Below are positions 1 through 27,758 of a DNA stretch of 64,000 nt, piece by piece. The translations under genes and the position numbers were made by a program. The notes beneath the pieces are model-generated. The model saw nothing but the letters and a program-made list of their open reading frames with translations, had not been told where the DNA came from and searched no databases. This DNA comes from an uncultured Cohaesibacter sp. (GTDB lineage: Bacteria; Pseudomonadota; Alphaproteobacteria; Rhizobiales; Cohaesibacteraceae): the NCBI RefSeq assembly GCF_963682185.1, contig NZ_OY821667.1, positions 2,294,001-2,358,000 on the forward strand, given 5' to 3'. The stretch's first letter is position 1, and the number at the start of each line of letters is the position of its first letter.

Positions 1-501
1 GCTTTGATTGACAATGTCGTCAATGGTCTTGGGCTTGGTGTAAAAACCCGGAACCGGCGGCATAATGATCGCACCACTGCGCGTTGCCTGATCCATTAGT
101 GCGATATGGCCCGCATGAAACGGTGTTTCCCTCAGCATCAGCACGAGCCTGCGGCGTTCCTTGAGGCAGACATCGGCGGCACGCGATATCAGATCTTCGG
201 CATAGCAGTTAGCAATGCCGCTCAAGGTCTTGACGGAACAGGGAGCCACCAGCATCCCTTCGCAGGAGAAAGAACCCGAAGCGATGGCCGCACCAATATC
301 CTTGTGGCTGTATGTTACGTCGGCCAAAGCACGAATTTCGTCGCCACTGATTTCAAGCCCCTCTTCCTGCGCGGTGCGCAGGGCCGATGGAGAGATGACC
401 AGATGCGTTTCCACGTCTTTCAGCCCCTTGAGCATTTGCAGCGCACGAACGCCGTAGATGGTACCGGAAGCACCGGTGATGGCGACGATCATTCTTTTCA
501 T
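1..501 (-). CDS. ubiX: UbiX-family flavin prenyltransferase, 3' end outside window
   Basis: UbiX enzymes join dimethylallyl phosphate to FMN and make the prenylated FMN cofactor needed by UbiD decarboxylases. The 167 visible codons begin MKRMIVAITGASG, with the GASG turn of the FMN-binding Rossmann-like fold, and continue through the family features APCSVKTLSGIA and IMPPVPGFYTKP. No stop is reached, so roughly the last 20-25 residues lie outside the window. The ATG overlaps the TGA of the upstream UbiD gene (ATGA), so the two are translationally coupled. The dedicated pairing suggests that this copy serves the neighbouring UbiD. It may not be the ubiquinone-pathway copy. The family call is secure and the pathway is open. 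Confidence 0.93.
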   Translation of the reverse strand, partial: MKRMIVAITGASGTIYGVRALQMLKGLKDVETHLVISPSALRTAQEEGLEISGDEIRALADVTYSHKDIGAAIASGSFSCEGMLVAPCSVKTLSGIANCYAEDLISRAADVCLKERRRLVLMLRETPFHAGHIALMDQATRSGAIIMPPVPGFYTKPKTIDDIVNQS

Positions 502-1943
502 GACTTGAAGTCCGGACGGATGGAATGAAGCAGAGCCCGCATGCGTTCGGTGACGTCTTCGGGAGGCAATGCCCTGTCATATCCCTGTCCACGGTCCCCG
601 GCTTTGCAGGTGGCGTCGTAGCCAACCTTGGTTACAAGGCCGTTGGTTTCCTGTGCTTCGGAGCGGTCGCCGGGCATGTCTTCGACAATGAGAATGTCCC
701 GCTCGGATTTCATGCGGTTGAGTTTGGCCAATTCTACCTGCTGCAGATCCCACGGATCGACATCGGAATCGACGACTGTTACATTCTTGATGATACTGAC
801 CGCACCCCAGCACAACGATATGGCGCGACGCGCCTGCCCCGGACGAGGGTTGTGCAACTGGATAACGACATTGTTCCGACCACTGCCGGTTGTCGTCACC
901 GCGACCTCGCCAACATTCTGCAGAACGCGGGACAGATTTGCCTTAAGGCTCGCCGCAATGGGAACGCCTGCAATATAGCTATGTTCCATGTGGTAACCGG
1001 GTTCAATGACCTGCAACATTGCATCGTCTCGGCAGGTCATGCAGCTGAATGTAACGAGAAAACCGTGACCGTAGTCTTCGTACATGCCGTGATATTCTGA
1101 AACAGGCCCTTCCTTGATCAGCTGATCGACATGAATGTGCCCTTCGAGAATGATTTCTGCTTCTGCCGGCACATCAAGGTTAAGTGTCTTGGCTTTTGCC
1201 AAGCGCACAGGCTCTCCCAGAAGTGCACCTGCATTGTGCAACTCGTCATCGCCCAGCCCCAGATAAAGGCATGCCGCCAACTGGATGACAGGATGCGCCC
1301 CAAGCACGACGGCTAGTTCAAGAGCCTCTCCACGGGCGGCAGCTTTCTGCGCCATAATGGCAAGGTGATGGTTGGGTGCGATACCGATCATCGCGGTCTC
1401 AGGTCCCAAAATTTTGAGCCGGGCGTAAGAGGCATTGCCCTCTCCGGTTTCGGGATCTTTTGCCACCATGAGACCGGCAGAAATATAGGGTCCGCTTTCT
1501 TTGGTGAAGAAGGTCGGAACCGGAAGGTTCGAGAAAATATTTTCCTTGATGACCGTCTGTTGAACGGGAGCATCATCTACCAGAACGGGAGCAACCGGTT
1601 TCTTGACAGAGTTTGTCAGTGTGCTGAGGATGTCCGAGACGGGTACTCCGAGAGCCAACGCAATGCGCTCCCGGCTGCTCAGAAGATTGCCAAAGACTGG
1701 AATGCCAAGGTCATCGACATTGTTCATGACAACAGCGGCGCGATCATCAACCAGCGACAGCAGTGATGATACTTCATAGTTGCTATTAACCTTTTCCTCG
1801 ATGACAAACAGTTCGTCCTGTTCATTCAGCGCAGCCAACATCGGGCGGCAGGATTGGGCACTTTTACCTGACTTTTCAATGGCAAATGGAATGCCCTTCT
1901 TGGGCTGACGCTTGGCATCGGAAGAAGAGGGTGCAGTTGTCAC
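498..1943 (-). CDS. UbiD-family prenyl-FMN-dependent decarboxylase
   Basis: UbiD-family enzymes reversibly decarboxylate aromatic, heteroaromatic or alpha,beta-unsaturated acids using prenyl-FMN. Visible family features are NASYARLKILGPE, the APNHHLAIMAQKA helix, VVLGAHPVIQLAA, the SEYHGMYEDYGHGF active-site segment and VVDSDVDPWDLQQVE near the C-terminus. I place the start at GTG 1943 because AAGGAG lies six bases upstream, giving 481 residues; a TTG at 1970 would add nine. It overlaps ubiX by four bases and diverges from a double LysR regulator. The residues resemble the decarboxylase group that handles phenolic or heterocyclic acids more than biosynthetic UbiD, but the substrate cannot be read from the sequence. 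Confidence 0.9.
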   Translation of the reverse strand: MTTAPSSSDAKRQPKKGIPFAIEKSGKSAQSCRPMLAALNEQDELFVIEEKVNSNYEVSSLLSLVDDRAAVVMNNVDDLGIPVFGNLLSSRERIALALGVPVSDILSTLTNSVKKPVAPVLVDDAPVQQTVIKENIFSNLPVPTFFTKESGPYISAGLMVAKDPETGEGNASYARLKILGPETAMIGIAPNHHLAIMAQKAAARGEALELAVVLGAHPVIQLAACLYLGLGDDELHNAGALLGEPVRLAKAKTLNLDVPAEAEIILEGHIHVDQLIKEGPVSEYHGMYEDYGHGFLVTFSCMTCRDDAMLQVIEPGYHMEHSYIAGVPIAASLKANLSRVLQNVGEVAVTTTGSGRNNVVIQLHNPRPGQARRAISLCWGAVSIIKNVTVVDSDVDPWDLQQVELAKLNRMKSERDILIVEDMPGDRSEAQETNGLVTKVGYDATCKAGDRGQGYDRALPPEDVTERMRALLHSIRPDFKS

Positions 1944-2134
1944 GCTAGGCTCCTTGGCATTTTCTATCAATCATATTGTCGATTATGCCCAGAGCGCTCG
2001 GAGAGGATAGCAGTCAAATTTCGAACCAGCCCATAACAAAAACAGAACGACTTCTCGCCCTAATTGGACGCGCGAAACAAAGCCATCAAAGGAGAAGTGA
2101 AAAGTCTGACCTCCCAGCAAAACCTATGGTTGCC

Positions 2135-2233: not shown

Positions 2234-4156
2234 ATGGGCAACCATGTCCCAAGCATTGACTTCCGGCATCTCTCAAACTTCGTTCAGACCTGCCAGAGTC
2301 CCTCTGTTACCAGCGCAGCCAGCAAGCTCAATCTTGCCACATCTTCTCTCAGTTCCAGTCTGCGAACACTAGAAGAGCAGATCGAGATCAAGCTGTTCCG
2401 GCGCATTGGTCGCCATCTCTATTTGCTGCCAAGTGCTAACTGGCTGTTTCAATGGGCGCTGAAAATATTGCATGAGGAAGCTTATGCGCGGTCGATGACA
2501 CGATATCCCTCTGATCAGTTGCGTGTGATCTTGGTTGAATTCAGGCTGAAGGCATCCATCGGATTGGTTTCGAAAGCATTGGTTCGTGCCATTTCCGACA
2601 TGCGTCAAGCTCATCCGGATCTACGCATCGACTATCGCTTTGCGAATGAACCCGGATTCCACTGGATCACCTCGCAGGAACAGTTTCCCAATGCACGCAA
2701 ACCGAACATTGTTGTCGGTTACAAGTTGGATACCGAGACACTTTCGGGCGAAGTAAGCGCTGTCAAAACCTTGCTGGCGGATCACTGGGTCTCTGCGGGA
2801 GTGGCATTTGACGCTGACGAGGAAAGCGACTGGGCCCTTTCCTCCGCAGAAACTCTATCAGTGATGAATCTGGGAGAGCAATTGATCGCATCTCTCGTTG
2901 CTGACGCAGAGATCAATGGCTATAAACATCGCCTTCGCTTTCTCGATGATCGGCCGATCACCCTGCCTACCCTGATCACCGAAAATCCCGGCACGCGCTT
3001 CATTCTTCCCAAGAGCATGCTGACGAAACGTCTCGGCATGAGCGGTGTTGCGGTGCAACCCATCAGTCCGACCCTGTCCGCCGATATTCAATATTGCGTT
3101 AATCGAGAAAATGACCCCGCGATCGACGACTTTATCGAAGCTATGCGTTGGCATCTGGCCAATCCGGACGACGGTATCATCTTTCAGCCCCAGATGACCT
3201 ACCGCGAATTGCGCTATTTCAATCAGACCATCAAGTGCGGAAGTATCGCGGCTGCCTCCCGCGCCGAACAGGTCGCTCAGCCCGCTATGTCCACTCAAAT
3301 TCGCAAGTTGGAAAATGTGATGCAGGGTCGACTCTTCGTTCGTCAGAGCAGCGGGCTTGAACCAACCGAGCTGGGAGACAGGCTGCGCCGTCATGCCCAA
3401 TTGGTCGAGAATGGCGTTAATCGTCTGTTTCTCGAACGCCAGAATATTGCCAGCGACACACAGAACCGCTTGACGATCGGGTTGTTACCAAGTTCTGGGC
3501 ACGACAGTCTCATGACCGAGAGTGTCGCCCGCGCATTGACGCGCTTTCTGAAAGACCATCCGCATTGCCAGTTGAACATCATCGAAGGGTCGACAAGCGA
3601 GTTGCACCAAGACGTCAGCAACAGGGCTTTGAATTTCGCCATAGTCGGTAATGCCCAGCCGCAGATGGCCAGAATCAGCATTGGCAAAAGCGAGAAACTG
3701 TCCCTTGTAGCAAACGCATCTCTAGGATTGCAGACCAGAAAGCGGATCTCGCTATCAGAGATGTCAGAATTGCCTCTCATTCTGGCTCCTCGCAGCCTAT
3801 CCATGCATGCTGACGCGATTCAGGAGGCTGTATTGCACAAGCTTTCCTTGAAGTCGGTCATGGAAATCGGATCGGTGCCGCTTTTAATCGCCCTGCTGCG
3901 TCAGGCACCGCTCTGCACCATTTTGCCCGTTTCTGCGGTACGTGCCGATTTGATCAACGGAACAGTTACAGCCACCCCCATTGTCGAGGAATTCAGCCTG
4001 CGCCAACTGATGCTGATTTATTCAACCGAGCGCACCTTGTCCAACCTGGAACGCTCGCTCATCAGCTTTCTGAAGGACGCGTTCCGAGAACGCTCCGATC
4101 ACTTTGTGCAGCGCTCAGATCAGGCCCCCAATTCCGCGATGGAGGACACCTTGTAA
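2234..4156 (+). CDS. Tandem double LysR-type transcriptional regulator
   Basis: This 640-residue protein contains two full LysR units in one chain. Unit 1 has a winged helix-turn-helix at about residues 9-68 (RHLSNFVQTCQ, then AASKLNLATSSLSSSLRTLE) and a periplasmic-binding-protein-like effector domain to about 310. Unit 2 restarts at residue 321 (MTYRELRYFNQTIKCGS, then AASRAEQVAQPAMSTQIRKLE) with a second effector domain at about 410-615. Ordinary LysR proteins have about 300 residues and one unit. There is no stop or start between the units, so this is a real fusion or intragenic duplication. It diverges from ubiDX and precedes two ABC transporter operons, which it probably regulates. Confidence 0.92.
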   Translation: MGNHVPSIDFRHLSNFVQTCQSPSVTSAASKLNLATSSLSSSLRTLEEQIEIKLFRRIGRHLYLLPSANWLFQWALKILHEEAYARSMTRYPSDQLRVILVEFRLKASIGLVSKALVRAISDMRQAHPDLRIDYRFANEPGFHWITSQEQFPNARKPNIVVGYKLDTETLSGEVSAVKTLLADHWVSAGVAFDADEESDWALSSAETLSVMNLGEQLIASLVADAEINGYKHRLRFLDDRPITLPTLITENPGTRFILPKSMLTKRLGMSGVAVQPISPTLSADIQYCVNRENDPAIDDFIEAMRWHLANPDDGIIFQPQMTYRELRYFNQTIKCGSIAAASRAEQVAQPAMSTQIRKLENVMQGRLFVRQSSGLEPTELGDRLRRHAQLVENGVNRLFLERQNIASDTQNRLTIGLLPSSGHDSLMTESVARALTRFLKDHPHCQLNIIEGSTSELHQDVSNRALNFAIVGNAQPQMARISIGKSEKLSLVANASLGLQTRKRISLSEMSELPLILAPRSLSMHADAIQEAVLHKLSLKSVMEIGSVPLLIALLRQAPLCTILPVSAVRADLINGTVTATPIVEEFSLRQLMLIYSTERTLSNLERSLISFLKDAFRERSDHFVQRSDQAPNSAMEDTL

Positions 4157-4310: not shown

Positions 4311-4401
4311 GCTAGCCCGATCACCTGAGAAAACAATAAATGCTCGAGAGTCATTCTGGCGATCTGAACAGACCACGGGAACAGTTAGAAAGGGTTACGC
4401 A

Positions 4402-5509
4402 ATGAATGGATCCAAGCCTTCAGTGGGATTCCAGAATTACCTACGTACCGCTGCAAAATTGAGTTTGCGCCTCAACAGCGCTCTTTTGGCAACGGTTTTT
4501 GCGACCGGCTTCATCGCTTCTGCTGAAGCCCAAGGACGCACCGGCCAAACCGGAAAAGCTGGTCATGAACGTCTGGGGTGGCCCGTTTGAGGCCTGCATC
4601 AGCACCTATTCGGCCAAACCGTTCGAGAAAGACACCGGCATCAAGGTCGAACTGCTCACCAAGGCTCCACCGCTTGCCAAATTGCAGGCAGAAGGAGACA
4701 GCCCGGAAGTCGACATTCTGATCGGCGGATCGGTCCAGCGCAAGATTGCTGAAGCACAGGGCCTGATTGTCGATATGGATGCAGACAATATCCCCGAGCT
4801 AAAAGACATTTATGACATGGCGAAATATCCCAATGGGGTCGTCGTCAACTTCTCCTCGCTTGGCCTTGCCTACGACACCACCAAGTGGGACACGCCACCA
4901 ACCTCATGGTTCGACCTGGTTTCCGCAGACACGCCAGGCAAGATCGTGGTCCGTCAGCCCGATGCGCAGAACACGGTTGCATGGATGGCGATCATGGCCA
5001 AGGAGCTGAATGGCGACTGGCCAACGACCATCGATGAATACAAGAAGGTCGGAGAACTGCTCAGCGAGAATATGAAACCTCGTCTTGCCGTGATCGCGAC
5101 CAACACCGCCACCACACGCGCAGCCTTCACCGACGCTGGCGTTTCTCTTGGCGTATGGACAGATACGCAGGTTTCCAACTTTGCCAAAGCCTCCGGATTG
5201 CCAATCGCCTTTGCCGCACCGAAAGAAGGTGCGACCATGATTGACTCGACCGCGATGATCACCAAAACCCCGAATAAATACTGGGCGGAAAAGCTGATCG
5301 GCTACATTCTTAGCCATGATGCTCAAAAGGGCTGTGCGGAGACCGGGTTCTATGCCCCCTCCAACTCAACCGTCGTGCTTGGTGACGAATTGGTCGGCAA
5401 AGTGACCTTTGGCAAAGAAGCCATTGGCAATCTGGTCAGCATCCCCTGGGACAAACTCAATCCTATCAATCAGGACATCGCCGAGCTTTTCTACGCTTCG
5501 GTCCAATAA
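4402..5509 (+). CDS. PotD-type ABC transporter substrate-binding protein, signal peptide frameshifted
   Basis: This is the periplasmic binding protein of an importer in the spermidine/putrescine/iron/thiamine class. The mature part reads VMNVWGGPFEACISTYSAKP and ends YASVQ at 5509. A convincing signal peptide starts at ATG 4402 (core LNSALLATVFATGFIASAEA) but lies in a different frame. Frame one runs into a stop at 4590, and the mature protein needs a +1 shift near 4530-4534 at GAAGCCCAAGG. Dropping one C of the CCC run restores AEA followed by KDAPAKPEK. The alternative TTG start at 4499 gives a protein without a signal peptide. It is either a recent indel or a base error; the operon behind it is intact. 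Confidence 0.8.
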
Positions 5510-5594
5510 GTCAATTCCCCGCAGAAGATGCAGGGCAGCCCACAGGGCTGCTCTGCCCCTTTTGTCTTACAAAAGCCAAATCAGGATTTTCGAG

Positions 5595-6698
5595 TTGAGC
5601 ACCCTATCCAGTACAGCCAGCAAAGTTGACCCTCATCAGACAGCAGCCATCGAGCTCAGAGATATCAGTTTCTCGTATGATGGTGAACGCACTATCCTCA
5701 ATCGACTGTATTTGCATATCCTGCCTGGCGAGTTCTTTTCCCTCATCGGCCCGAGCGGTTGCGGCAAAACAACCATCCTTAGCCTCGTATCGGGCCTCAT
5801 GACGCCGGACTCCGGCCAAATTCTTATCGGTGACAAAGATGTCACCACAATGCCGACCCACAAGCGCGACATCGGAGTTGTCTTTCAGAATTACGCTCTT
5901 TTTCCGCATATGACCGTTTTCGAGAATGTCGGATACGGTTTGAAAATGCGCGGCGTATCGGCAGCGGAGCGCAAGGACATTGTCGAAGACGCGCTCGAGA
6001 TGGTTGGCATGGGTGCTATGATGAAGCGCTTCCCCGGAGAGCTTTCCGGAGGCCAGCAGCAGCGCATCGGCCTTGCCCGTGCCGTTGCCTCCCGTCCGCG
6101 CGTGATGTTGCTAGACGAGCCACTCTCCAACCTCGATGCCAAATTGCGCGAGCAGATGTGCATCGAGATTTCCGACCTCCAGCGCCGCCTCGGCATGACC
6201 ATGCTTTATGTCACGCATGATCAGGGCGAAGCGATGGCCATGTCCAGCCGTCTGGCCATCATGAATGGTGGTGTTGTCGAAGAACTGGGCGCTCCTCATA
6301 GCGTCTATGAGAAACCCAAAAGTCATTTCGGAGCGCAATTTCTCGGTAACGTCAATCTGTTCAAGGCATCCGCGAACAAGAAGGGATATCGGCTTACAGA
6401 AAACATAACCCTCGCCGCAGCCAGCCTCGTAGACGCAGACACAGAAGTGACGGTCATGGTGCGCCCGGAGGCCATTCTGCTCGATGCACCAGCAGACAGC
6501 GCCAACCGGTTCGAGGCAACAGTCACCCGATGCGTCTATCGTGGGGGCTATGACGAATTGACGCTCGCCATTCCGGGCATTCAGCAAGAAGTACTGGCAA
6601 CCGCCTACGGCAAGCGCGGATACGCAGCAGACGACAAACTGTTTTGCGCCATTCCGCCAGAAAGCATCCATATTCTGGAGGCGAATGAGAAATCATGA
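5595..6698 (+). CDS. PotA-type ABC transporter ATP-binding protein
   Basis: This is the cytoplasmic ATPase that powers the importer. Walker A is GPSGCGKTT, the Q loop lies in VVFQNYALFPH, the signature is LSGGQQQR, Walker B is VMLLDEPLSNLD and the H loop is YVTHDQ. A C-terminal TOBE-like regulatory region follows (about residues 275-360, VMVRPEAILL). The frame is open well upstream, but TTG 5595 preceded by AGGA gives 367 residues, the usual PotA length. The end overlaps the next permease start by four bases (ATGA at 6695-6698), as expected in a coupled operon. Confidence 0.92.
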   Translation: MSTLSSTASKVDPHQTAAIELRDISFSYDGERTILNRLYLHILPGEFFSLIGPSGCGKTTILSLVSGLMTPDSGQILIGDKDVTTMPTHKRDIGVVFQNYALFPHMTVFENVGYGLKMRGVSAAERKDIVEDALEMVGMGAMMKRFPGELSGGQQQRIGLARAVASRPRVMLLDEPLSNLDAKLREQMCIEISDLQRRLGMTMLYVTHDQGEAMAMSSRLAIMNGGVVEELGAPHSVYEKPKSHFGAQFLGNVNLFKASANKKGYRLTENITLAAASLVDADTEVTVMVRPEAILLDAPADSANRFEATVTRCVYRGGYDELTLAIPGIQQEVLATAYGKRGYAADDKLFCAIPPESIHILEANEKS

Positions 6699-7582
6699 GC
6701 GCTGCCATCCGTCACAAGAAAAAGTCTCGCCTGTTTGCTTCCTCCCCCCTGTGGAGCCTGCCCGGGCTACCTATGGCCTTGGTGTTCGGCGCCAGTCTTG
6801 TCTTTCTCGTCGTTATCAGCTTTTTCAAGCCTTCGGTCTTGTCTCTGTTCGAACCTGCAATTTCGATGCAGAACTATGTCAAGGCCTTCACCTCGCCTCT
6901 CTATACCAAGGCCATCTGGCTCAGCGTGCTCTATGCGGTAATAGCGACCCCTATTGCTGCCCTCATAGCCTACCCGATGGCCTTTTACATCGCCCGATTT
7001 GCCGGACGGTACAAAGGGTTTTTCATCGCCATTATCGTATCCGTCTTTCTGGTTACCTTCGTGGTCAAGATTTTCGCCTGGCAGATTTTGCTGCAACAGA
7101 ATGGCCCTATTGCACAGTTTTTCTATGCAATCGGTATCACCAGTGAGCCGGAATCTCTGGTGGGCACGGCAACCGGCGTGATCATCGGGCTTATCTATGC
7201 GCCGCTGCCCTACATGATCCTTGCGATGCTTGCTTCGATCGAAGGACTGCCGCGCAATCTGGAACACGCATCCGCTGTATGTGGCGCGTCACCTCTCAAG
7301 ACCTTTCTCACGGTAACTCTGCCGCTTTCCATGCCAGGCGTCGTCACGTCGCTGTTGTTCGGCTTCGCGCTCAATGTGGCCGCCTATATCGTTCCAGCGA
7401 TGTTAGGTGCGGGCAAGATTTCCATGTCTGGGCTGGTCATCCAGCGCGTATCGGTCGGCTTTGGTTCTATCGGTGGTAACTGGCCGCTGGCTGCGGCTCT
7501 GTCCGTCCAGTTGCTCGTCATCAGCATGGCCTTTTCGACCATTCTACTCAAACTCTTTACCGGCAGGAGGTGGCGTCGATGA
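6695..7582 (+). CDS. PotB-type ABC transporter permease
   Basis: This is an inner-membrane permease of 295 residues with about six hydrophobic segments, beginning MALVFGASLVFLVVISFF after a basic N-terminus. The coupling motif that docks on the ATPase is around EHASAVCGASPLKTFLTVTL, the EAA loop of binding-protein-dependent permeases. The start overlaps the ATPase stop and the end overlaps the next permease start. It is probably paired with the following gene as a heterodimer. Confidence 0.9.
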   Translation: MSAAIRHKKKSRLFASSPLWSLPGLPMALVFGASLVFLVVISFFKPSVLSLFEPAISMQNYVKAFTSPLYTKAIWLSVLYAVIATPIAALIAYPMAFYIARFAGRYKGFFIAIIVSVFLVTFVVKIFAWQILLQQNGPIAQFFYAIGITSEPESLVGTATGVIIGLIYAPLPYMILAMLASIEGLPRNLEHASAVCGASPLKTFLTVTLPLSMPGVVTSLLFGFALNVAAYIVPAMLGAGKISMSGLVIQRVSVGFGSIGGNWPLAAALSVQLLVISMAFSTILLKLFTGRRWRR

Positions 7583-8421
7583 ATGCCCCGATCAAAAGCA
7601 AGGACAGTGCTATGACGCCGGGCAGGCTCATCCTGACCATCATATTCGCGCTAGGTCTCATCTTCATGATCGCCCCCATCATCGTGGTTGTTGCGACGTC
7701 CTTCACCCGTGGAGGCATCATTTCGTTTCCTCCGCAAGGGCTGGGCTTGCGATGGTATCACGCGGCGATGGCCCGAACAGACTTCATCTCGGCGCTCGGC
7801 ACCAGCGTTCTCCTTGCGATCACCGTCAGTGCCTTCACGCTTGTAGTAGGCATTCTCGTCACATTGCCAATTGTTCGAGGCCGGTTCCGCGGACAAAAGC
7901 TGCTTGAAAATTATGTGCTGTTGCCGTTGTTTGTCCCCAATGTGGTCATCGGTTTTGCAGCACTGCCGATCATCAGCTATCTGGGACTGCTCGGCACGAT
8001 GACTGCAGTGTTCGTCGTCTATGCGATTGTCATCCTGCCCTTTGTGGTACGCAGCCTGATAGGCTCGTTCCTGAGTGCCGACATGTCGCTTGAAAACGCT
8101 GCCCAGGTTTTCGGAGCCAACCCGATGCGGGCCTTTTTCGACACCACCCTGCAACTCTCCATCAGAGGCATCTTTGCGGCAAGCATCTTTGCAGTGGTTT
8201 CGGTGATGGACGAAGCGGTGATCATCAACTTTATCGGCGGCAACGATGTGGTCACCTTCCCGATGCGCTTTTTTTCCTATCTATCAGAAACCTATGACCC
8301 GATCGCCTCGGTCTTCGCCACCATCATGATCGTTGCCACAACAGCAATCATGCTGGTCCTCAACAAATTGATGAATTTCGACCAGTTGGCGCGAAATCTC
8401 GGAATGCAGAAACAGAAATAA
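7579..8421 (+). CDS. PotC-type ABC transporter permease
   Basis: This second inner-membrane permease has 280 residues. Its ATG at 7579 overlaps the TGA of the first permease and follows AGGAGG at 7565-7570; a GTG at 7570 would add three residues but lies inside that Shine-Dalgarno. Hydrophobic segments include LILTIIFALGLIFMIAPIIV, and the EAA-type loop reads ENAAQVFGANPMRAFFDTTL. It completes a PotD-PotA-PotB-PotC set and is followed after 27 bases by the cyclophilin-like gene. Confidence 0.9.
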   Translation: MNAPIKSKDSAMTPGRLILTIIFALGLIFMIAPIIVVVATSFTRGGIISFPPQGLGLRWYHAAMARTDFISALGTSVLLAITVSAFTLVVGILVTLPIVRGRFRGQKLLENYVLLPLFVPNVVIGFAALPIISYLGLLGTMTAVFVVYAIVILPFVVRSLIGSFLSADMSLENAAQVFGANPMRAFFDTTLQLSIRGIFAASIFAVVSVMDEAVIINFIGGNDVVTFPMRFFSYLSETYDPIASVFATIMIVATTAIMLVLNKLMNFDQLARNLGMQKQK

Positions 8422-8448: not shown

Positions 8449-8880
8449 ATGACACAGAACCCCAAGCAGGACCTGAGCCTTGTCGTCGAGGATCTCGACA
8501 TAAACATCAGGATCGCCCTTGAAACAGAACGCAACCCTGAGCTTGTCGAAGCTATTGCCACCCAATTGCCGCTCACCAGCCCCATGGGCCATGTGGTCAT
8601 CTCGGGCGAAGGCATCTGGATGCCGACACGCCTCGTTTATCTGAGTCAGCCGAAAATGGTCCAGCGCCAGAAGGGCTCGGTCTATCTCAATGCCCCCGGT
8701 CAGTCGATCTGCATCACCTACGGCATCATCACGGAAACTGCGGTGGTCAACCAGTTCGGGGCCATTCCGGAGGATGACTTCCCGGCGCTTGAAAAGCTGG
8801 GACAGGCCGTATGGAAACTGACTGTCGAGCAGCCACGTCGCGTGCCTGTCATTGCAAAACTCGACTGGATCAAAAGCTGA
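8449..8880 (+). CDS. Cyclophilin-like domain protein (DUF3830-like), cucumopine-synthase-related
   Basis: This is a 143-residue soluble protein with no signal peptide. Residues about 20-140 form a single domain: RNPELVEAIATQLPL, then MGHVVISGEGIWMP, then GSVYLNAPGQSICITYG and a C-terminal helix ALEKLGQAVWKLTVEQ. The same ordered motifs recur in the C-terminal half of the fused gene at 12324-13274. From memory, this is the small cyclophilin-like beta-barrel of DUF3830/TM1367 proteins, also described as one half of cucumopine synthase. The next gene, 17 bases on, encodes the partner helical domain. A role in making, breaking or binding the transported compound is inferred. Confidence 0.7.
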   Translation: MTQNPKQDLSLVVEDLDINIRIALETERNPELVEAIATQLPLTSPMGHVVISGEGIWMPTRLVYLSQPKMVQRQKGSVYLNAPGQSICITYGIITETAVVNQFGAIPEDDFPALEKLGQAVWKLTVEQPRRVPVIAKLDWIKS

Positions 8881-8897
8881 GAGTGAGGAAAAAGATC

Positions 8898-9428
8898 ATG
8901 AAAAAATGGCAAGAACTACAGGCCGAGCTTGAAGCGGAAATCGATGCGATCTGGCTTGACGAACCACTCGAAATTGAAAAACTCCGCCGAGGCGTCATGG
9001 ACACCGGAGCGGGCAGCGGCGAGCAGGTCTTCAGCATTCTGGTCCATCTGGAAAGCTTTCTGATGCTGTTTGGCGCCAACGTCTTCTATCGCTTTGTGCG
9101 CCTTGCACATGACAAGACACTGGACGTCGATCAACTGCGCGCCACCGTGAAAGTGTTCGTGCATAAGCCCTTCAACGTGTTCGAATTCATGGGCGACATG
9201 GGCCTGCATCGTCTGCATGCTCTGGGCAATGACTACATCGAGGCGATTGACGATGTGGAGACCCTGGAAGATTTCATGGCCCTCACCGGTTCCATGCAGA
9301 CCTACATCATCCGTCTGCACCGCTGGATCCACTTCTATTTTCCGTGGAACCTGGGTGTTGCCTTCCCGCATCACGATCCATCAGAATTCGGTGCCTTTGC
9401 GGAACGCCTCAAGGCTACCGAGAAATAG
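8898..9428 (+). CDS. Helical-bundle protein, partner of the cyclophilin-like protein (Cucumopine_C-like)
   Basis: ATG 8898 follows GAGGAA and gives 176 residues. The protein looks almost wholly helical. Its diagnostic stretch is IIRLHRWIHFYFPWNLG, which matches LNSWSHHYFPWDLGEHF in the N-terminal half of the fused gene at 12324. The histidines and the YFPW core are the best active-site candidates. From memory, it matches the helical-bundle domain named from cucumopine synthase; here that domain stands alone just after its cyclophilin-like mate, so the two probably form one complex. The catalytic activity is unproven. Confidence 0.68.
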   Translation: MKKWQELQAELEAEIDAIWLDEPLEIEKLRRGVMDTGAGSGEQVFSILVHLESFLMLFGANVFYRFVRLAHDKTLDVDQLRATVKVFVHKPFNVFEFMGDMGLHRLHALGNDYIEAIDDVETLEDFMALTGSMQTYIIRLHRWIHFYFPWNLGVAFPHHDPSEFGAFAERLKATEK

Positions 9429-9453
9429 AGTTCCGATTTTCTAATTCCCTCTG

Positions 9454-9488
9454 CCACATTCCGTCCCCTTGTTCCTGACGGAATGTGG
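9454..9488. repeat. 12-bp perfect inverted repeat after the first operon
   Basis: CCACATTCCGTC (9454-9465) and GACGGAATGTGG (9477-9488) pair perfectly around an 11-base loop, 25 bases after the helical-bundle stop. No T tract follows. It may protect the 3' end of the first operon's mRNA or act with the terminator at 9583. Confidence 0.6.
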
Positions 9489-9582
9489 AACTACGAAGCC
9501 AGATGCCTTTTATCCCGGCAATGGTTTCGATACTCCTCTACTGGCTCCCCCAGTTCTCTGCCGACTTGTGGAGCCAACCTTG

Positions 9583-9616
9583 ACGCATGTCCATCCGGGC
9601 ATGCGTTTTTGTTTTT
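9583..9616 (+). terminator. Probable rho-independent terminator between the two ABC operons
   Basis: ACGCATG and CATGCGT form a 7-bp stem (9583-9589 with 9600-9606) followed by TTTTTGTTTTT. It lies in the 391-base gap 9429-9819. The rest of that gap has no convincing gene and probably carries the promoter of the second operon. Confidence 0.6.
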
Positions 9617-9819
9617 GCGCTCCTCTGGGCGTTTCGAATGCGCTTCTTCCTTCGTTCGAAAAACGATATTGGCGGCTTTGGCTTTTCAGGGATGCCCTCG
9701 AGAATTGCCATCCCTTTATCATCTCCTCATTCAAAAACTCACATTTCCTCGCAAGCCGGCGCAAGACCGGCAAGACGATGAATTCACCATTTGCAATCGC
9801 AAACAAGAAGGTTGGAACC

Positions 9820-10656
9820 ATGAAAAATTGGCTTGCCATGCTTGGAATGACCGCTGTGGTCGGTTTTTCCGCAAGCGCATCTTTCGCCGCAGATATTGCC
9901 GTCCCTGATAAATTGAAAGATCAGGGAAAGATCATTTTCTGCTCGGATCTGAAAAGTCCTCCGAGCCAGTTTATCGCTGAAGACGGGCAGACTCCGACCG
10001 GCGTTGCCTATGACATGCTCGAGGGCATCGGTGAAGAGCTGAACCTGCCGATTGAAATGTTCAACGTTTCTTTCTCCGGCATTTTCGCCGCACTGGACTC
10101 AGGCCATTGCAACGGCATCATGGCATCGACCTCCAAGAACCCGACCCGTCTGGAAAAATACAATTTCGTCGATTACTGGTCTGTTCAGTCCGGTCTTCTG
10201 GTCAAGAAAGGCAATCCGGATCACCTGTCAACCTTTGAAGACCTCAGCGGTAAGCGGGTCGCCGTTCTGCTCGGATCTGCCAATGAGCGTCGTCTCAAGG
10301 CAGCCAATGAAAAGCTGACCGAAGCAGGCAAACCCGTCATGGAAATCGCCACATATCCGGGCAACACGACTGCATTCCAGGAACTCGATCTTGGTCGTGT
10401 TGATGCCATGGTGAGCGACACGCTCGTGCTCTCCTACTTCATGAACCGTTCCAACGGCAAATTCGAGATTGGCGGCGCACCAGTTCCTCCCGCAACCCTT
10501 GGCATCATTGTCGCCAAACAGGATGTTGATACAGCCAATGCATTCCGTGCAGCACTGGATGACATGGAAGCCACAGGCAAGCTGACCAAGATCATCGACA
10601 AGTGGGGTGTCGGCGACGGCCTCACCGTCTGTACCAGCACAAGCCCTTGTAAGTAA
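9820..10656 (+). CDS. Polar-amino-acid-type ABC transporter substrate-binding protein
   Basis: This periplasmic binding protein has 278 residues. ATG 9820 gives a good signal peptide (MKNWLAMLGMTAVVGFSASA, cleavage after SFA). The mature part has the SBP family 3 pattern: IIFCSDLKSPPSQFIAEDGQ, GVAYDMLEGIGEEL, GHCNGIMASTSKNPTRLEKY and LSGKRVAVLLGS. An in-frame ATG at 9778 would put 14 extra residues before the signal and is less likely. Octopine- and nopaline-type opine transporters belong to this class, which fits the context but does not fix the ligand. Confidence 0.9.
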   Translation: MKNWLAMLGMTAVVGFSASASFAADIAVPDKLKDQGKIIFCSDLKSPPSQFIAEDGQTPTGVAYDMLEGIGEELNLPIEMFNVSFSGIFAALDSGHCNGIMASTSKNPTRLEKYNFVDYWSVQSGLLVKKGNPDHLSTFEDLSGKRVAVLLGSANERRLKAANEKLTEAGKPVMEIATYPGNTTAFQELDLGRVDAMVSDTLVLSYFMNRSNGKFEIGGAPVPPATLGIIVAKQDVDTANAFRAALDDMEATGKLTKIIDKWGVGDGLTVCTSTSPCK

Positions 10657-10671
10657 TAATCTGATTATACG

Positions 10672-10702
10672 CTCCGGAGCAGTCATCCTCTCTGCTCCGG
10701 AG
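10672..10702 (+). promoter_or_regulatory. Intercistronic hairpin after the binding-protein gene
   Basis: CTCCGGAGCAG (10672-10682) and CTGCTCCGGAG (10692-10702) are perfect 11-bp arms with a 9-base loop. There is no T tract, so read-through is expected. Such hairpins commonly stabilise the upstream binding-protein message so that more of it is made than of the permease. Confidence 0.6.
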
Positions 10703-10719
10703 TATTCTGGAGTGTTTGG

Positions 10720-11514
10720 ATGTCCGGTTTTCTTGATGCATTTTTCGGTAGCAATGGTGGCCCAGGCCTCATGTTTGACACCGATTATTTTCTGCAATTC
10801 GTCTTTTCGCCTTCGGCAGCGATGATGAAAGGCATGCTCCTCACAGTGATTGCTGCGGTCGTATCGCAACTTGGCGGCGTCACAGTGGGCGGGTTATTGG
10901 CGATCTCTGGCCTCAGCCAATCGCGTTTTTTCCGAGCGGTCAATCAAACCTACATCTTCTTCTTTCGCGGCACACCGGTGCTTGTCCAGTTGGTTTTGAT
11001 CTATTTCGGTCTCCCCTATCTGCTCGGAGGCTTTGACCTGTTTCCCGCCCGCATCTACATCGGACCTTTCATTCTGCCAGGTGCTCTGGTCGCAGGCATT
11101 CTCACTTTCATGCTGCATGAAGCAGCCTATATGAGCGAGATCATCCGCGCGGGCATCCTGTCCATCGAAGAAGGGCAGGAGGAAGCCAGCAAGTCACTTG
11201 GCATGTCTCCGGCCAAAACCATGATGTATATCATCATGCCACAAGCGATCCGCGTCATCATTCCCCCTCTTGGCAACCAATTCAACCAGATGCTCAAGAC
11301 AACATCTCTACTGAGCGTGATCGCTGTGCCGGAAATGTTCCGTATTACCGAGGAAATGCAATCGGCCACCTACAAGAGCTTTGAAGTTTATCTCGGTGTC
11401 TCAGTTTTCTATCTGGTCCTGACCGGCATCTGGACCATCATCCAGTTTCAAATCGAGCGGCATTACGGCCATAGCCGCAACCAGACCACTGCCATGGGAG
11501 TGTCTCAGCCATGA
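10720..11514 (+). CDS. Polar-amino-acid-type ABC transporter permease
   Basis: This inner-membrane permease has 264 residues, of the HisM/GlnP class. Family features are YIFFFRGTPVLVQLVLIYFG, the EAA loop EEGQEEASKSLGMSPAKTMM and IIPPLGNQFNQMLKTTSLLS. Only one permease gene is present, so it probably works as a homodimer. The TGA overlaps the next ATG (ATGA at 11511-11514). Confidence 0.92.
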   Translation: MSGFLDAFFGSNGGPGLMFDTDYFLQFVFSPSAAMMKGMLLTVIAAVVSQLGGVTVGGLLAISGLSQSRFFRAVNQTYIFFFRGTPVLVQLVLIYFGLPYLLGGFDLFPARIYIGPFILPGALVAGILTFMLHEAAYMSEIIRAGILSIEEGQEEASKSLGMSPAKTMMYIIMPQAIRVIIPPLGNQFNQMLKTTSLLSVIAVPEMFRITEEMQSATYKSFEVYLGVSVFYLVLTGIWTIIQFQIERHYGHSRNQTTAMGVSQP

Positions 11515-12287
11515 CCCGTTTAAAAGACAAGATTGTAGAATGTGCCGATGTGGTCGCCGGCTTTAGCGACAAGGCGATCGTAAAGGGCGTCAATCTCGAT
11601 GTCATTCGGGGCGAAGTGGTCGCCATCATCGGACCGTCCGGTTCCGGCAAAACCACATTCCTGCGCTGTATCAATCATCTACACCCCATCAGCAAGGGGG
11701 TCATCCGAGTCGATGGTGAATTTGTCGGCTATGAGGCCCGCGAAGACGGCCTTCTTCATCCCCTGCCCGAAAAGAAGATTGCACCGGCTCGCCGGAAAAT
11801 AGGCTTCGTCTTCCAGCGCTTCAATCTGTTCCCGCACCGCACCGCGCTTGGCAATGTCACGGAAGCCCCTGTACGTGTGCTCAAGATGTCACGGGATGAA
11901 GCCAACGAGCGTGGCAAGGATTTATTACGCCGCGTAGGGCTTGGCGACAAGTTCGATTCCTACCCGAGTGCGCTGTCTGGCGGACAGCTGCAGCGCGTCG
12001 CTATTGCCCGTGCCCTTGCCATGAACCCCAAAATGTTCCTTTTCGACGAACCGACAAGTGCGCTCGACCCGGAGATGGTCGGAGAGGTGATTTCTGTCAT
12101 CAAGGATCTTGCCAGTCAGGGCATGACGATGATCGCCGTCAGCCACGAGATGCGTTTCGTACGAGAGATCAGTGACCGCGTTGTGGTGTTTGATGAGGGC
12201 AAGATCGTCGAAACCGCGCCGCCGGAAAAGCTTTTCAATGATCCCGCAAGTGATCGTACACGCGATTTTCTTTCCAAGATTGCTTAA
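11511..12287 (+). CDS. Polar-amino-acid-type ABC transporter ATP-binding protein
   Basis: This ATPase has 258 residues, of the GlnQ/HisP class. Walker A is GPSGSGKTT, the Q loop lies in VFQRFNLFPH, the signature is LSGGQLQR, Walker B is MFLFDEPTSALD and the H loop is AVSHEM. An insert between Walker A and the Q loop (EARE-DGLLHPLPEKKIAPA) is longer than in GlnQ, a variation known in this class. It is followed after 36 bases by the fused two-domain gene, evidently in the same operon. Confidence 0.93.
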   Translation: MTRLKDKIVECADVVAGFSDKAIVKGVNLDVIRGEVVAIIGPSGSGKTTFLRCINHLHPISKGVIRVDGEFVGYEAREDGLLHPLPEKKIAPARRKIGFVFQRFNLFPHRTALGNVTEAPVRVLKMSRDEANERGKDLLRRVGLGDKFDSYPSALSGGQLQRVAIARALAMNPKMFLFDEPTSALDPEMVGEVISVIKDLASQGMTMIAVSHEMRFVREISDRVVVFDEGKIVETAPPEKLFNDPASDRTRDFLSKIA

Positions 12288-12323
12288 AGCGCAATCCAAA
12301 CAAGACAAAAGATTGGAGAATTC

Positions 12324-13274
12324 ATGTCTACTGTCAGTGACATCATCAAGAAGATCGAGGCGCAAATTGCTGCCTCCATGGACGCCGAGCCAGAAGAAAT
12401 GCGCATGGTGCGCACCGGGGAGCATGGTGACAATGCTGGCTCCTACGGGCAGTATTTCGCCACGCTCGATATCTATGCAGGCATGATGCGTGACTATGCC
12501 GGTTATACCCTCTATCCGATGATCCGCATGGCACGGTCTGGAGACTATGACGCCAAGACGCTCGCCAATATGTTTGCGGCTTTCAGCCCCGCCTACCATA
12601 ACTATCTGGGCTATTCGGGCGTGCGCAAACTGGGTGAATTTGCCGCTGCACTCGTTGATGCCTTCCCGGCCGCCAGCGTCGAAGAAATCGGTGACGGCCT
12701 GATTGCGCTCAATCGCTATGTGAACCGTCTGAACAGCTGGTCTCACCACTATTTTCCATGGGATCTGGGCGAGCATTTCCGCTATGACAGCATACCTGAA
12801 GAAGACGAGACATATTATGAGAGCGGACGTGATTTCGTTAAGGGTTCCATTGGCGATCAATATATCCGCATGACCTGGGAACCGCTCGGCATCACCGCAG
12901 TTGCCGAACTTGCGACAAGACAGAATCCCGAACTCTGCGCAGACCTGCTCAGCACCATTCCGTTTCGCGTGACTCAAGAGCACGCCGTTGTCACAGGTAA
13001 ATCCATGTATGCTTGGACGCCGGCCATGTCTGTCGCACCCGTCGGCTGGCGCGAAATGATCCGCGAGGCTCCGTTTGGCCGCATGCGTTACTCCCAGAAT
13101 ACCGGTCAGAAGCTGATCATCCAGTATGGCCCGACCACCGAGGATCTCTATGCACCCGTCCTGGGGCAGATCCTGCCTGAATATCTCGACGGTCTCCACA
13201 CGCTGGCCGAAAAGGTCTGGGATGCAAACTACAACAGCAAAGAACTGATCTGGCTAACGGTCGAGAAGATCTGA
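12324..13274 (+). CDS. Fused helical-bundle and cyclophilin-like protein (cucumopine-synthase-like, domains in reversed order)
   Basis: This 316-residue cytoplasmic protein begins at ATG 12324 after GGAG. Residues about 30-155 are a helical bundle ending LNSWSHHYFPWDLGEHF, like the separate protein at 8898-9428. Residues about 175-316 are a cyclophilin-like domain with RQNPELCADLLSTIPF, HAVVTGKSMYAWTP, EAPFGRMRY, GQKLIIQYGPTTEDLY and LHTLAEKVW, like the separate protein at 8449-8880. The fusion has helical bundle first, whereas the split genes run cyclophilin-like first. Pairing each version with its own importer suggests two related substrates or two steps on one substrate. The enzyme activity is inferred only. 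Confidence 0.75.
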   Translation: MSTVSDIIKKIEAQIAASMDAEPEEMRMVRTGEHGDNAGSYGQYFATLDIYAGMMRDYAGYTLYPMIRMARSGDYDAKTLANMFAAFSPAYHNYLGYSGVRKLGEFAAALVDAFPAASVEEIGDGLIALNRYVNRLNSWSHHYFPWDLGEHFRYDSIPEEDETYYESGRDFVKGSIGDQYIRMTWEPLGITAVAELATRQNPELCADLLSTIPFRVTQEHAVVTGKSMYAWTPAMSVAPVGWREMIREAPFGRMRYSQNTGQKLIIQYGPTTEDLYAPVLGQILPEYLDGLHTLAEKVWDANYNSKELIWLTVEKI

Positions 13275-13925: not shown

Positions 13926-14186
13926 GTCTACTGCTGTCTTCATATTGTCTTAGATACCGCGCCCAGGAACGCCACCAAAAACACGGAATGCATACCAGAG
14001 AGCATCAAACAGCATCTCAGGGGTTTGAAGGGGATACGCTCGCACCAGAAAGGCACGGCTGTGAGAGAGCTTAATATGAGCCACCTGCAGTTTAACACGT
14101 TCGCCTGCGACGGTTGCCCAATCCTCACTCCAATCAAATTGAAAAGCTTCTCCGGGCCGGAATACAAATGGCACAAAGGTACCGCG
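13922..14186 (-). mobile_element. Internal fragment of an IS21-family transposase (IstA)
   Basis: On the minus strand the frame reads FVPFVFRPGEAFQFDWSEDW, then VKLQVAHIKLSHSRAFLVRA and DALWYAFRVFGGVPGRGI. A stop then replaces the usual Tyr, and DNMKTAVDRVG follows. The FDW aspartate and DNMKTAV belong to the DDE core of IstA. Only about 88 of some 500 residues are left, with a nonsense codon at 13950-13952 and no terminal repeats or istB. It is dead DNA. Confidence 0.75.
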
Positions 14187-14318
14187 ACCAAGGTAATCCT
14201 TGGTCTTCAGCAAGAAGGTTTCTTCCGTTTTGGGGTAGGTATCCCTGATATCAACCGGGACGGCAGCTCGATGATAATAAGTAGCTTTTCGACGATATAG
14301 GCGGGGATGGCCAGACAT
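14187..14318 (-). pseudogene. N-terminal stub of a tyrosine recombinase (DUF6538-type integrase)
   Basis: The stub begins MSGHPRLYRRKATYYHRAAV and runs to EETFLLKTKD, the typical N-terminus of island and phage integrases carrying DUF6538. It then fuses directly into IS21 sequence, so the catalytic domain is gone. It starts about 100 bases from the 3' end of tRNA-Ser, reading away from it, which is where an integrase lies in an element integrated at that tRNA. Confidence 0.65.
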
Positions 14319-14417
14319 CTTTTCCATAGCTCCACTGTAACACTATTATGGAACAACGGGAAGCTAGAAGTCTGAAATATCAATAAGTTGTTGATGTTAT
14401 TGACATCAAAATTGATA

Positions 14418-14507
14418 TGGCGGAGAGAGAGGGATTCGAACCCTCGGAACGCTTGCGCGATCAACGGTTTTCGAGACCGCCCCGTTCGACCACTCCGGCA
14501 CCTCTCC
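14418..14507 (-). tRNA. tRNA-Ser (anticodon CGA)
   Basis: The minus strand reads GGAGAGGTGCCGGAGTGG at the 5' end. The anticodon loop is CTCGAAA between GCGGT and ACCGT, followed by a variable arm, GGTTCGAATCC and the acceptor CTCTCTCC. CCA is encoded at 14418-14420. Anticodon CGA reads UCG. The gene is 90 nt, normal for a class II tRNA. Confidence 0.95.
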
Positions 14508-27748: not shown

Positions 27749-27758
27749 GGCACCCAAG

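What the first reader, a model, noticed from the sequence alone, without database searches (positions are those of the whole stretch)
8449..13274. Split and fused versions of one two-domain protein, each tied to its own ABC importer
The protein at 8449-8880 (cyclophilin-like) and the one at 8898-9428 (helical bundle) match the two halves of the fused protein at 12324-13274. Shared marks are the YFPW-[ND]-LG core of the helical part and, in the barrel part, RNPELV/RQNPELC, HVVISGE/HAVVTGK, GQ-[SK]-x-[CI]-I-x-YG and VWxLTVE/VWDANY. The split pair follows a PotABCD-type importer; the fused gene follows a polar-amino-acid importer. These are the domains I recall for cucumopine synthase, which condenses histidine and 2-oxoglutarate. 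A bacterial locus with two forms beside two importers suggests uptake and conversion of opine-like or imidazole/hydantoin-like compounds.
Basis: partly seen in the sequence, partly recalled or inferred. Interest (0 to 1): 0.82.

Follow-up and report, generated by a model that had tools for sequence, protein, structure and literature searches.

The report
Twin opine-type Pictet-Spengler enzymes
A bacterial chromosome carries two distantly related versions of the enzyme type that makes the histidine-derived plant-gall compounds cucumopine and mikimopine, each beside its own uptake system and near histidine-breakdown genes, which suggests (not yet shown) that the bacterium eats such compounds by running the reaction backwards.

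Summary
8449-8880 is a cyclophilin-like barrel, 8898-9428 a Cucumopine_C helical bundle, and 12324-13274 carries both domains in the opposite order. The fused protein is 40-44% identical to KslB, a Pictet-Spenglerase solved with a Trp/2-oxoglutarate product. Trees give two old lineages: the split pair groups with the T-DNA gene of mikimopine plasmid pRi1724, the fused protein with the larger group holding that of cucumopine plasmid pRi2659. On those plasmids, non-T-DNA relatives sit among importers, hydantoinases and histidine-degradation genes. HutH lies in 14 of 25 proteobacterial and 0 of 7 actinobacterial relatives' loci. Upstream, the window's cluster continues with UbiX, ErtD- and ErtE-type hydrolases and a HutH-type lyase. 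Best reading: uptake and retro-Pictet-Spengler cleavage of histidine-type opines, perhaps one lineage per epimer. Direction and substrate are inferred. Against an exact match: three of ten diagnostic residues look actinobacterial, HyuAB is absent from the cluster, its lyase is divergent, and PotD is frame-broken. New variant of a known kind.

The parts
1..501 (-). UbiX flavin prenyltransferase (gene runs on beyond the window start)
   Evidence: PF02441 8e-41; NCBIfam UbiX above cut-off
498..1970 (-). UbiD-family decarboxylase
   Evidence: UbiD, UbiD_N, UbiD_C; TIGR00148 280 bits over 245; conserved in Martelella sp. HB161492 (65%) and G010 (86%)
2234..4156 (+). 640-aa regulator with two LysR-type HTH matches
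   Evidence: HTH_1 in two stretches plus LysR_substrate; 30% over 637 aa to the 624-aa LysR-family regulator near the T-DNA gene on pRi2659
4499..5509 (+). PotD-type solute-binding protein; signal peptide lies in another frame just upstream
   Evidence: SBP_bac_8 5e-23; frames differ in the window, one frame in G010
5409..6698 (+). PotA-type ATPase (the true start is probably inside this ORF)
   Evidence: ABC_tran 1.9e-36 and TOBE_2
6695..7582 (+). PotB-type permease
   Evidence: 32-33% to the pRi1724 and pRi2659 PotB-type permeases
7570..8421 (+). PotC-type permease
   Evidence: 24-28% to the pRi2659 and pRi1724 PotC-type permeases
8449..8880 (+). Split enzyme, barrel subunit (cyclophilin-like)
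   Evidence: Cyclophil_like2; model pLDDT 85.6; KslB barrel TM 0.85; N29, H48, Y91, E96 invariant
8898..9428 (+). Split enzyme, helical-bundle subunit (Cucumopine_C)
   Evidence: PF18631 2.4e-28; 48.5% to the pRi1724 subunit
9811..10656 (+). Family-3 solute-binding protein (start estimated; a signal peptide opens near 9820)
   Evidence: SBP_bac_3 2.5e-24; 43% to pRi2659 and 49% to P. phenoliruptrix, 25% to pRi1724
10720..11514 (+). Polar amino-acid permease
   Evidence: BPD_transp_1 4.5e-22; 62% to P. phenoliruptrix, 53% to pRi2659, 29-31% to pRi1724
11511..12287 (+). Polar amino-acid ATPase
   Evidence: ABC_tran 4.7e-32
12324..13274 (+). Fused enzyme, helical then barrel (KslB order)
   Evidence: PF18631 1.7e-19; KslB best E 2.4e-29, 44%; E273 and H220 invariant
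13950..14327 (-). Fragment with DUF6538 next to a tRNA gene; probable recombinase remnant (the link of DUF6538 to recombinases is recalled)
   Evidence: PF20172 1.1e-8
14418..14507 (-). tRNA-Ser(CGA), possible island end
   Evidence: ARAGORN

Best explanation
The locus is a chromosomal catabolic module for histidine-type opines or close analogues. Two ABC importers take the compounds in. The fused enzyme and the two-subunit enzyme both belong to the KslB/McbB/cucumopine-synthase family and run it backwards (retro-Pictet-Spengler), splitting the imidazo-pyridine adduct into an aromatic amino acid (probably histidine) and 2-oxoglutarate. The HutH-type lyase upstream of the window then deaminates histidine, and ErtD- and ErtE-type hydrolases finish a hydantoin-5-propionate to glutamate route. 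The two lineages would serve different stereoisomers, the split pair a mikimopine-like and the fused enzyme a cucumopine-like epimer. Shown: homology, fold, invariant residues, two lineages, gene context. Inferred: direction, substrate, epimer split, subunit assembly, the order of downstream steps, role of UbiD/UbiX.
For: Family and fold; the nearest solved enzyme is KslB, with entries bound to a Trp plus 2-oxoglutarate product. Lineages: the split clade (helical tree 21 rows, 99; barrel tree 19 rows, 100) holds the pRi1724 T-DNA gene; the other side (34 rows in each tree, 99 and 100) holds the T-DNA gene of pRi2659. The pRi1724 T-DNA gene is 54% and 40% identical to the adjacent split subunits and 24% (over 108 aa) to the window's fused enzyme; the pRi2659 T-DNA gene is 92% identical to the plasmid's own non-T-DNA copy. 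PMC5606197 (passages read) says pRi1724 carries mis and pRi2659 carries cus close to the right border. Context: non-T-DNA copies lie among importers, HyuAB and hutHUIG on pRi2659, pAvF25c and pRi1724, with an importer, a hydantoinase and hut genes on the P. phenoliruptrix Sym plasmid, and with an importer, HyuAB and hutH on the Sodalis praecaptivus plasmid. HutH occurs in 14 of 25 proteobacterial loci and 0 of 7 actinobacterial loci of the 32 found. The fused gene lies between the permease and ATPase genes of a polar amino-acid importer in L008, L057 and L060. In the window genome a second HutH-type gene lies about 11 kb upstream of the split pair, with ErtD (735 bits, cut-off 600) and ErtE (547, cut-off 520) genes between. 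In G010 the genes compared are 56-95% identical and include UbiX, UbiD, ErtD, ErtE and the lyase; in Martelella sp. HB161492 they are 59-84% identical, but its contig ends inside UbiD, so the upstream part cannot be seen there.
Against: No assay exists here for direction or substrate. At 10 columns that separate 7 actinobacterial from 14 other proteobacterial fused enzymes, the window protein agrees with the proteobacterial type at 5 (54, 62, 65, 104, 274), with the actinobacterial type at 3 (96, 141, 237) and with neither at 2 (200, 315). The cluster lacks HyuA/HyuB; four hydantoinase-B genes lie elsewhere in the genome. UbiD/UbiX has no place in a plain histidine route. The PotD gene is frame-broken in this assembly and the fused gene is frameshifted in G010. 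The cluster's HutH-type lyase is 39-42% identical to those of the plasmids, has Cys in the MIO triad, and is further from the pRi2659 HutH (41%) than the genome's other, canonical HutH is (63%). It falls below the TIGR01225 hutH cut-off. The PotD, PotB and PotC proteins are only 24-33% identical to the plasmid ones. 11 of 25 proteobacterial loci showed no HutH, several of them on short contigs.
Confidence: 0.58

Rival explanations
1. Biosynthesis: the two enzymes condense an amino acid with 2-oxoglutarate to make a secreted imidazole alkaloid, and the importers retrieve it or its precursors.
For: The named solved relatives are synthetic enzymes (KslB by its entry titles; McbB by PMC7024544, passages). 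A 98.1%-identical copy of the P. phenoliruptrix enzyme sits beside hisG, hisZ, hisC and an MFS transporter. Mixed diagnostic residues.
Against: Among the genes annotated here, those beside the enzymes are importers and degradative ones, and hisG and hisC probes found nothing in the window or the 10 kb before it. A CitMHS-type transporter lies further upstream, and the window right of 20 kb was not annotated. HutH linkage is seen in proteobacterial but not in actinobacterial loci.
Confidence: 0.15
2. Catabolism of a different imidazole adduct, for example one built on an oxidised or sulfur-bearing histidine, or with another carbonyl partner. The same retro reaction feeds the ErtD/ErtE route, and UbiD/UbiX removes a carboxylate that cucumopine does not need removed.
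For: ErtD and ErtE equivalogs, the unusual HutH-type lyase and UbiD/UbiX in place of HyuAB. Mixed diagnostic residues. UbiD and UbiX also lie beside a fused gene in a Rhodobacteraceae MAG (L067), though that UbiD is only 28% identical.
Against: No other part of the ergothioneine route (ErtA-C) was identified in the stretches read, and its presence elsewhere in the genome was not tested. The amino-acid importer subunits are closer to those of hut-linked fused loci (43-62%) than to those of pRi1724 (25-31%).
Confidence: 0.22
3. A decaying, non-functional island: genes acquired by transfer and already breaking.
For: Only 2 of 18 genomes of the genus, our own included, carry the family. PotD is frame-broken in the window and the fused gene in G010. 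A probable recombinase remnant and a tRNA lie at one side.
Against: The enzyme, amino-acid importer, UbiD and HutH-type ORFs are open in the window genome, and most of the layout is kept in two other genomes. Single frame breaks may be sequencing errors.
Confidence: 0.05

Closest known systems
KslB (PDB 9ns6, 9nst, 9k0a; kitasetaline pathway is recalled)
   Same: Helical-then-barrel order, 40-44% identity over the whole fused protein, 2-oxoglutarate product complex solved
   Different: KslB entries hold Trp and its products; actinobacterial relatives have no HutH nearby (0 of 7); the window differs from the actinobacterial rows at diagnostic columns 54, 62, 65, 104 and 274 but agrees at 96, 141 and 237
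T-DNA mikimopine synthase (mis) of pRi1724 and its two non-T-DNA homologues riorf22 and riorf23
   Same: Same clade as the window's split pair; the plasmid pair is split in the same order, with importers, HyuAB and hut genes within about 22 kb. PMC4242671 (passages read) already names riorf22 plus riorf23 as mis homologues outside the T-DNA; that these are the pair at 27055-28022 is my inference
   Different: The window pair is chromosomal, 56% (barrel) and 49% (helical) identical, and shares its locus with a fused enzyme
T-DNA cucumopine synthase (cus) of pRi2659 and the plasmid's helical-barrel and barrel-helical pair
   Same: Fused helical-barrel architecture, 42% identity; plasmid copies lie among importers, HyuAB and hutHUIG. 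A cucumopine-catabolic plasmid region (pAtAg67) is already in print (Hooykaas et al. 2022, seen only through passages of PMC10745273)
   Different: The window lacks the barrel-helical partner and HyuAB and has the split pair instead
McbB (PDB 3x27)
   Same: Both domains, in the order of the split genes; Pictet-Spengler chemistry (passages of PMC7024544)
   Different: One fused chain acting on Trp; 26-32% identity to window domains
Ergothioneine utilisation (ErtD, ErtE)
   Same: Both hydrolases pass the NCBIfam equivalog cut-offs; the ErtE candidate also passes a second Zn-dependent hydrolase model
   Different: ErtA, ErtB and ErtC not identified in the cluster

Membership tests
KslB/McbB/cucumopine-synthase Pictet-Spenglerases | Cucumopine_C helical domain | tested here: met
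   PF18631 99.6 and 70.9 bits, cut-off 27
KslB/McbB/cucumopine-synthase Pictet-Spenglerases | Cyclophilin-like barrel partner | tested here: met
   Fused: whole-length match to KslB. Split: TM 0.85 to the KslB barrel
KslB/McbB/cucumopine-synthase Pictet-Spenglerases | Conserved His and Glu of the barrel (Glu matching McbB E97, a recalled residue; numbering offset inferred) | tested here: met
   H48/H220 and E96/E273 the same in 51 of 51 aligned barrels; the two G010 barrel rows of the tree set of 53 were left out
KslB/McbB/cucumopine-synthase Pictet-Spenglerases | Pictet-Spengler activity in either direction | not testable with these tools
   Needs an enzyme assay
Mikimopine-synthase lineage | Groups with Mis | tested here: met
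   Split pair and Mis in one clade in both quick trees; long-branch warning for Mis; pairwise identities agree
Cucumopine-synthase lineage | Groups with Cus rather than KslB | tested here: inconclusive
   With the proteobacterial fused forms and a Rhodococcus one in the barrel tree (98), weaker in the helical tree (83); outside the Cus subclade; mixed diagnostic residues
Opine-catabolic locus of Ti/Ri type | Importer genes beside the enzymes | tested here: met
   but PotD is frame-broken
Opine-catabolic locus of Ti/Ri type | Histidine-degradation gene in the cluster | tested here: inconclusive
   HutH-type gene upstream of the window; PRK09367 550 bits over 524, but TIGR01225 521 below 539; ACG triad
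Opine-catabolic locus of Ti/Ri type | HyuA/HyuB beside the enzymes | tested here: not met
   None within the cluster; nearest Hydantoinase_B more than 600 kb away
Opine-catabolic locus of Ti/Ri type | On a Ti, Ri or opine-catabolic plasmid | tested here: not met
   Single 5.39-Mb contig
DUF3830 (PF12903) | Passes the curated cut-off | tested here: not met
   16.1 and 14.5 bits against 26; no match genome-wide at E 0.001
Ergothioneine utilisation | ErtA, ErtB, ErtC present | not tested
   One guessed accession proved to be another family

The most novel reading that the evidence does not exclude
One operon-sized locus holds a matched set of two retro-Pictet-Spenglerases of opposite stereochemistry, one split and one fused, so that the cell can use both epimers of a histidine/2-oxoglutarate opine or interconvert them through the shared open products. 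The two T-DNA synthases of plant-transforming bacteria would then be captured copies of two such bacterial lineages. In the same spirit, a Mimosa symbiont's Sym plasmid carries near-identical copies in a breakdown locus and beside histidine-biosynthesis genes and an MFS transporter, like a rhizopine system.
Probability: 0.33. Interest if true: 0.82.

Novelty: new variant of a known kind. Interest (0 to 1): 0.6.

Why it matters
Only asked for it directly; the library holds open-licence papers only, and Hooykaas et al. 2022 on the cucumopine-catabolic plasmid pAtAg67 was seen only as a citation, so the gene set of such loci may already be described. If true, the reading would name the cleavage step of cucumopine and mikimopine catabolism, explain where the two T-DNA synthases came from, and show a histidine-opine economy in bacteria far from Agrobacterium. 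It also offers a natural split version of a Pictet-Spenglerase.

Tried and rejected
Considered and dropped: (1) Split pair as a recent break of the fused gene. Rejected: opposite order, separate clades, 27% identity. (2) DUF3830 membership. Rejected: sub-threshold. (3) Transporter-linked cyclophilin chaperones. Rejected: family-wide invariant residues and the Pictet-Spenglerase match of both halves. (4) tRNA-Ser island with att repeats: a 24-base end of the tRNA (up to 3 mismatches) was found only at its own place in 40 kb upstream plus the window, so the island end is not established. (5) Promoter and terminator scan: no more sites than in shuffles (7 against a mean of 8.1; 10 against 12.2), so nothing is claimed. 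(6) A guess at ErtC by accession hit another family. (7) Structure model of the fused enzyme: the domain packing is uncertain (rmsd about 8.5-10 over the whole chain against KslB, linker pLDDT under 50), so only the family match is used. No model of the split pair as a complex was made. (8) PDB codes and KslB were searched in papers; the first gave none, the second listed nine, mostly unrelated, and I read none of them. (9) Random sampling of the phylum: 1 of 398 genomes, our own, so the family is rare but its prevalence is poorly measured.

Dropped rows: in the trees L014, L041, L072, L073 and L034 were left out (L014, L041 and L034 repeat genes already in; L072 and L073 hold the A. vitis gene of a kind already in), as were domain pieces shorter than 75 residues (55 helical and 53 barrel rows). 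In the residue count L015, L036 and L054 were also left out: four helical rows and two barrel rows, leaving 51 and 51. L069 and L072 lie on one contig, so the 25 proteobacterial loci are not all independent. The HutH count needs a tblastn match of at least 40% of the query length at 1e-10. In one search the group printed as HutH-linked holds 14 proteobacterial fused enzymes, of which four (L037, L062, L067, L071) showed no HutH in the stretch held; the window, L042 and L038 were kept out of both groups.

Full report
What is there. The window lies in a single-contig chromosome of 5.39 Mb. Its nearest relatives for this locus are an unnamed member of the same genus (G010) and Martelella sp. HB161492. 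From left to right on the plus strand: a 640-aa regulator with two LysR-type HTH matches, a PotDABC-type importer, the two small genes of the finding, a family-3 binding protein, permease and ATPase, and the fused gene. On the minus strand UbiD and UbiX begin just left of the regulator, and beyond the window start the same strand carries an ErtD-type hydantoin-5-propionate amidohydrolase (735 bits, cut-off 600), an ErtE-type N-carbamyl-L-glutamate amidohydrolase (547, cut-off 520), a HutH-type lyase and a small protein with a sub-threshold PNPOx match.

Check of the observation. The helical gene and the N-terminal part of the fused gene match Cucumopine_C at 2.4e-28 and 1.7e-19. Split against fused by BLASTP: 27% over 121 residues (E 4e-8) for the barrel, 27% over 162 (E 2e-14) for the helical part. 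The model of the split barrel (mean pLDDT 85.6) matches the barrel half of KslB at TM 0.85 and McbB at 0.83-0.85. Eight barrel positions and seven helical positions are the same in all 51 rows aligned across split and fused forms; among them are H48/H220 and E96/E273. I recall E97 of McbB as its catalytic Glu; with an inferred tag of 21 residues in PDB 3x27 it falls on the same column of the alignment. So the likeness is homology, not chance. The order differs: barrel then helical in the split genes, helical then barrel in the fused one.

What family. The best solved relatives are KslB entries, at 40-44% identity over the whole fused protein, some holding the product of L-Trp and 2-oxoglutarate; by sequence another entry group, 9uwa and 9uwb, scores about the same. 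McbB follows, with the other domain order. The enzymes of the Amycolatopsis pittospori and Streptomyces monashensis loci (L059, L063), the two that I searched, are close to these PDB chains.

Two lineages. One genome-collection scan with a mixed helical alignment gave 32 loci: 25 proteobacterial and 7 actinobacterial. Its single peptide pattern and a split protein as confirming query favour split forms, so the list is not a census. Thirteen hold the split barrel and helical pair (in L054 it is incomplete), 20 hold a helical-barrel fusion, five hold a barrel-helical fusion within about 5 kb of a helical-barrel one, and only L042 holds a split pair and a fusion together. Three other genomes hold both lineages at separate loci: Chelatococcus asaccharovorans, Martelella alba and Sodalis sp. 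dw_96. Quick maximum-likelihood trees (SH-aLRT support) put all split forms on one side and all helical-barrel and barrel-helical forms on the other, apart from the pRi1724 T-DNA gene, a barrel-helical fusion that falls with the split forms (99-100). The pRi2659 T-DNA gene falls with the fused ones. PMC5606197 (passages read) says pRi1724 carries mis and pRi2659 cus near the right border; I assign them to the ORFs at 25138-26064 and 147233-148195 by homology and by neighbouring RolB-family genes. The trees warn of long branches for Mis, but identities agree: Mis is 54% and 40% identical to the adjacent split subunits and 24% to the window's fused enzyme; Cus is 92% identical to the plasmid's own helical-barrel copy. 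That mis resembles two non-T-DNA genes, riorf22 and riorf23, is already in print (PMC4242671, passages read).

Context elsewhere. On pRi2659 and pAvF25c the non-T-DNA fused pair sits with two importers, HyuAB and hutHUIG; on pRi1724 the split pair is followed within about 22 kb by two importers, HyuAB and hutHUIG. P. phenoliruptrix has an importer, a hydantoinase and hutHUDIFG-type genes, and Sodalis praecaptivus an importer, HyuAB and hutH. HutH was found in 14 of 25 proteobacterial loci and 0 of 7 actinobacterial loci; HyuA or HyuB in 12 of 25. A random 20-kb stretch of a 5-Mb genome with one or two HutH genes would hold one in under 1% of cases (my estimate, not a computed control). In L008, L057 and L060 the fused gene lies between the permease and ATPase genes of a polar amino-acid importer. 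Split pairs lie within about 11 kb of PotABCD-type genes in pRi1724, L043, L044, L046 and L051.

How it most likely works. Cucumopine and mikimopine catabolism must break the bond made by the synthase. In the plasmid loci, of the gene products annotated, these synthase relatives are the obvious candidates for that chemistry; the hydantoinase-type proteins cannot be excluded. I therefore read the window as import, retro-Pictet-Spengler cleavage to histidine and 2-oxoglutarate, deamination by the HutH-type lyase, and a finish through hydantoin-5-propionate by ErtD and ErtE. The two lineages would serve the two epimers, since they hold the two T-DNA synthases; that mikimopine and cucumopine are epimers is recalled. 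A canonical HutH gene lies elsewhere in the genome. What UbiD/UbiX do is not known; UbiD and UbiX genes also stand beside a fused gene in L067, with a distant UbiD.

What speaks against it. Direction and substrate are untested. At ten diagnostic columns the window's fused enzyme agrees with the proteobacterial type at five, with the actinobacterial type at three, including H141 of the SHHYFPW motif, and with neither at two. HyuAB is missing from the cluster. The lyase is 39-42% identical to those of the plasmids, while the genome's other HutH is 63% identical to that of pRi2659; it carries ACG where the other HutH-type ORFs listed carry ASG, except G010. PotD has its signal peptide and mature part in different frames in the window, while G010 and L042 have longer ORFs there; G010's fused gene is frameshifted. 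The Pot-type importer proteins other than the ATPase are only 24-33% identical to the plasmid ones. The substrate may therefore be a relative of cucumopine rather than cucumopine itself.

Rarity. Within the genus 2 of 18 genomes, ours included, have the family, and 1 of 398 sampled from the phylum, our own. A DUF6538 fragment and a tRNA-Ser gene lie just right of the fused gene, which fits an acquired island, but no flanking repeat was found.

Verdict. Family membership by sequence and fold is firm, catabolic use is likely, and the epimer split is a testable idea. It is a new variant of a known kind.

Noticed in passing
L008:9983-10954 and L037:14236-15222 (NC_018696.1): Two 98.1%-identical fused enzymes about 24 kb apart on the Sym plasmid of a Mimosa symbiont: one in a hut/hydantoinase/importer locus, one beside hisG, hisZ, hisC and an MFS transporter. 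Looks like a synthesis and breakdown pair, as in rhizopine systems (recalled).
   Followed up: partly
L014:5610-7223 (minus strand; upstream of the window): HutH-type lyase with ACG in place of the ASG triad that forms the MIO cofactor; of the HutH-type ORFs listed only this gene and its G010 relative have it.
   Followed up: partly
window 4381-4620: Signal peptide and mature part of the PotD-type protein lie in different frames; G010 and Martelella sp. HB161492 have longer ORFs there. Decay or sequencing error.
   Followed up: partly
L015:9091-10017: The fused gene of the same-genus genome G010 is frameshifted after about residue 252.
   Followed up: no
L067:878-4351: A Rhodobacteraceae MAG has UbiD (28% to the window's), UbiX (59%) and a fused enzyme gene side by side.
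   Followed up: partly
window 13950-14507: DUF6538 fragment beside tRNA-Ser(CGA): possible integration site of an island; no flanking repeat found.
   Followed up: partly
L036:7997-9012 (NC_018696.1): A third, very divergent split pair on the same Sym plasmid, beside an amino-acid importer.
   Followed up: no
L005:10657-11613; also L007, L056, L062, L068, L069, L071: Several fused loci carry a second, barrel-helical paralogue near the helical-barrel one; its separate role is unknown.
   Followed up: partly
L013:8505-11280 (minus strand; about 9-11 kb left of the window start): AtuA-family protein and a CitMHS-type transporter upstream of the HutH-type gene; whether they belong to the cluster is unknown.
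   Followed up: no
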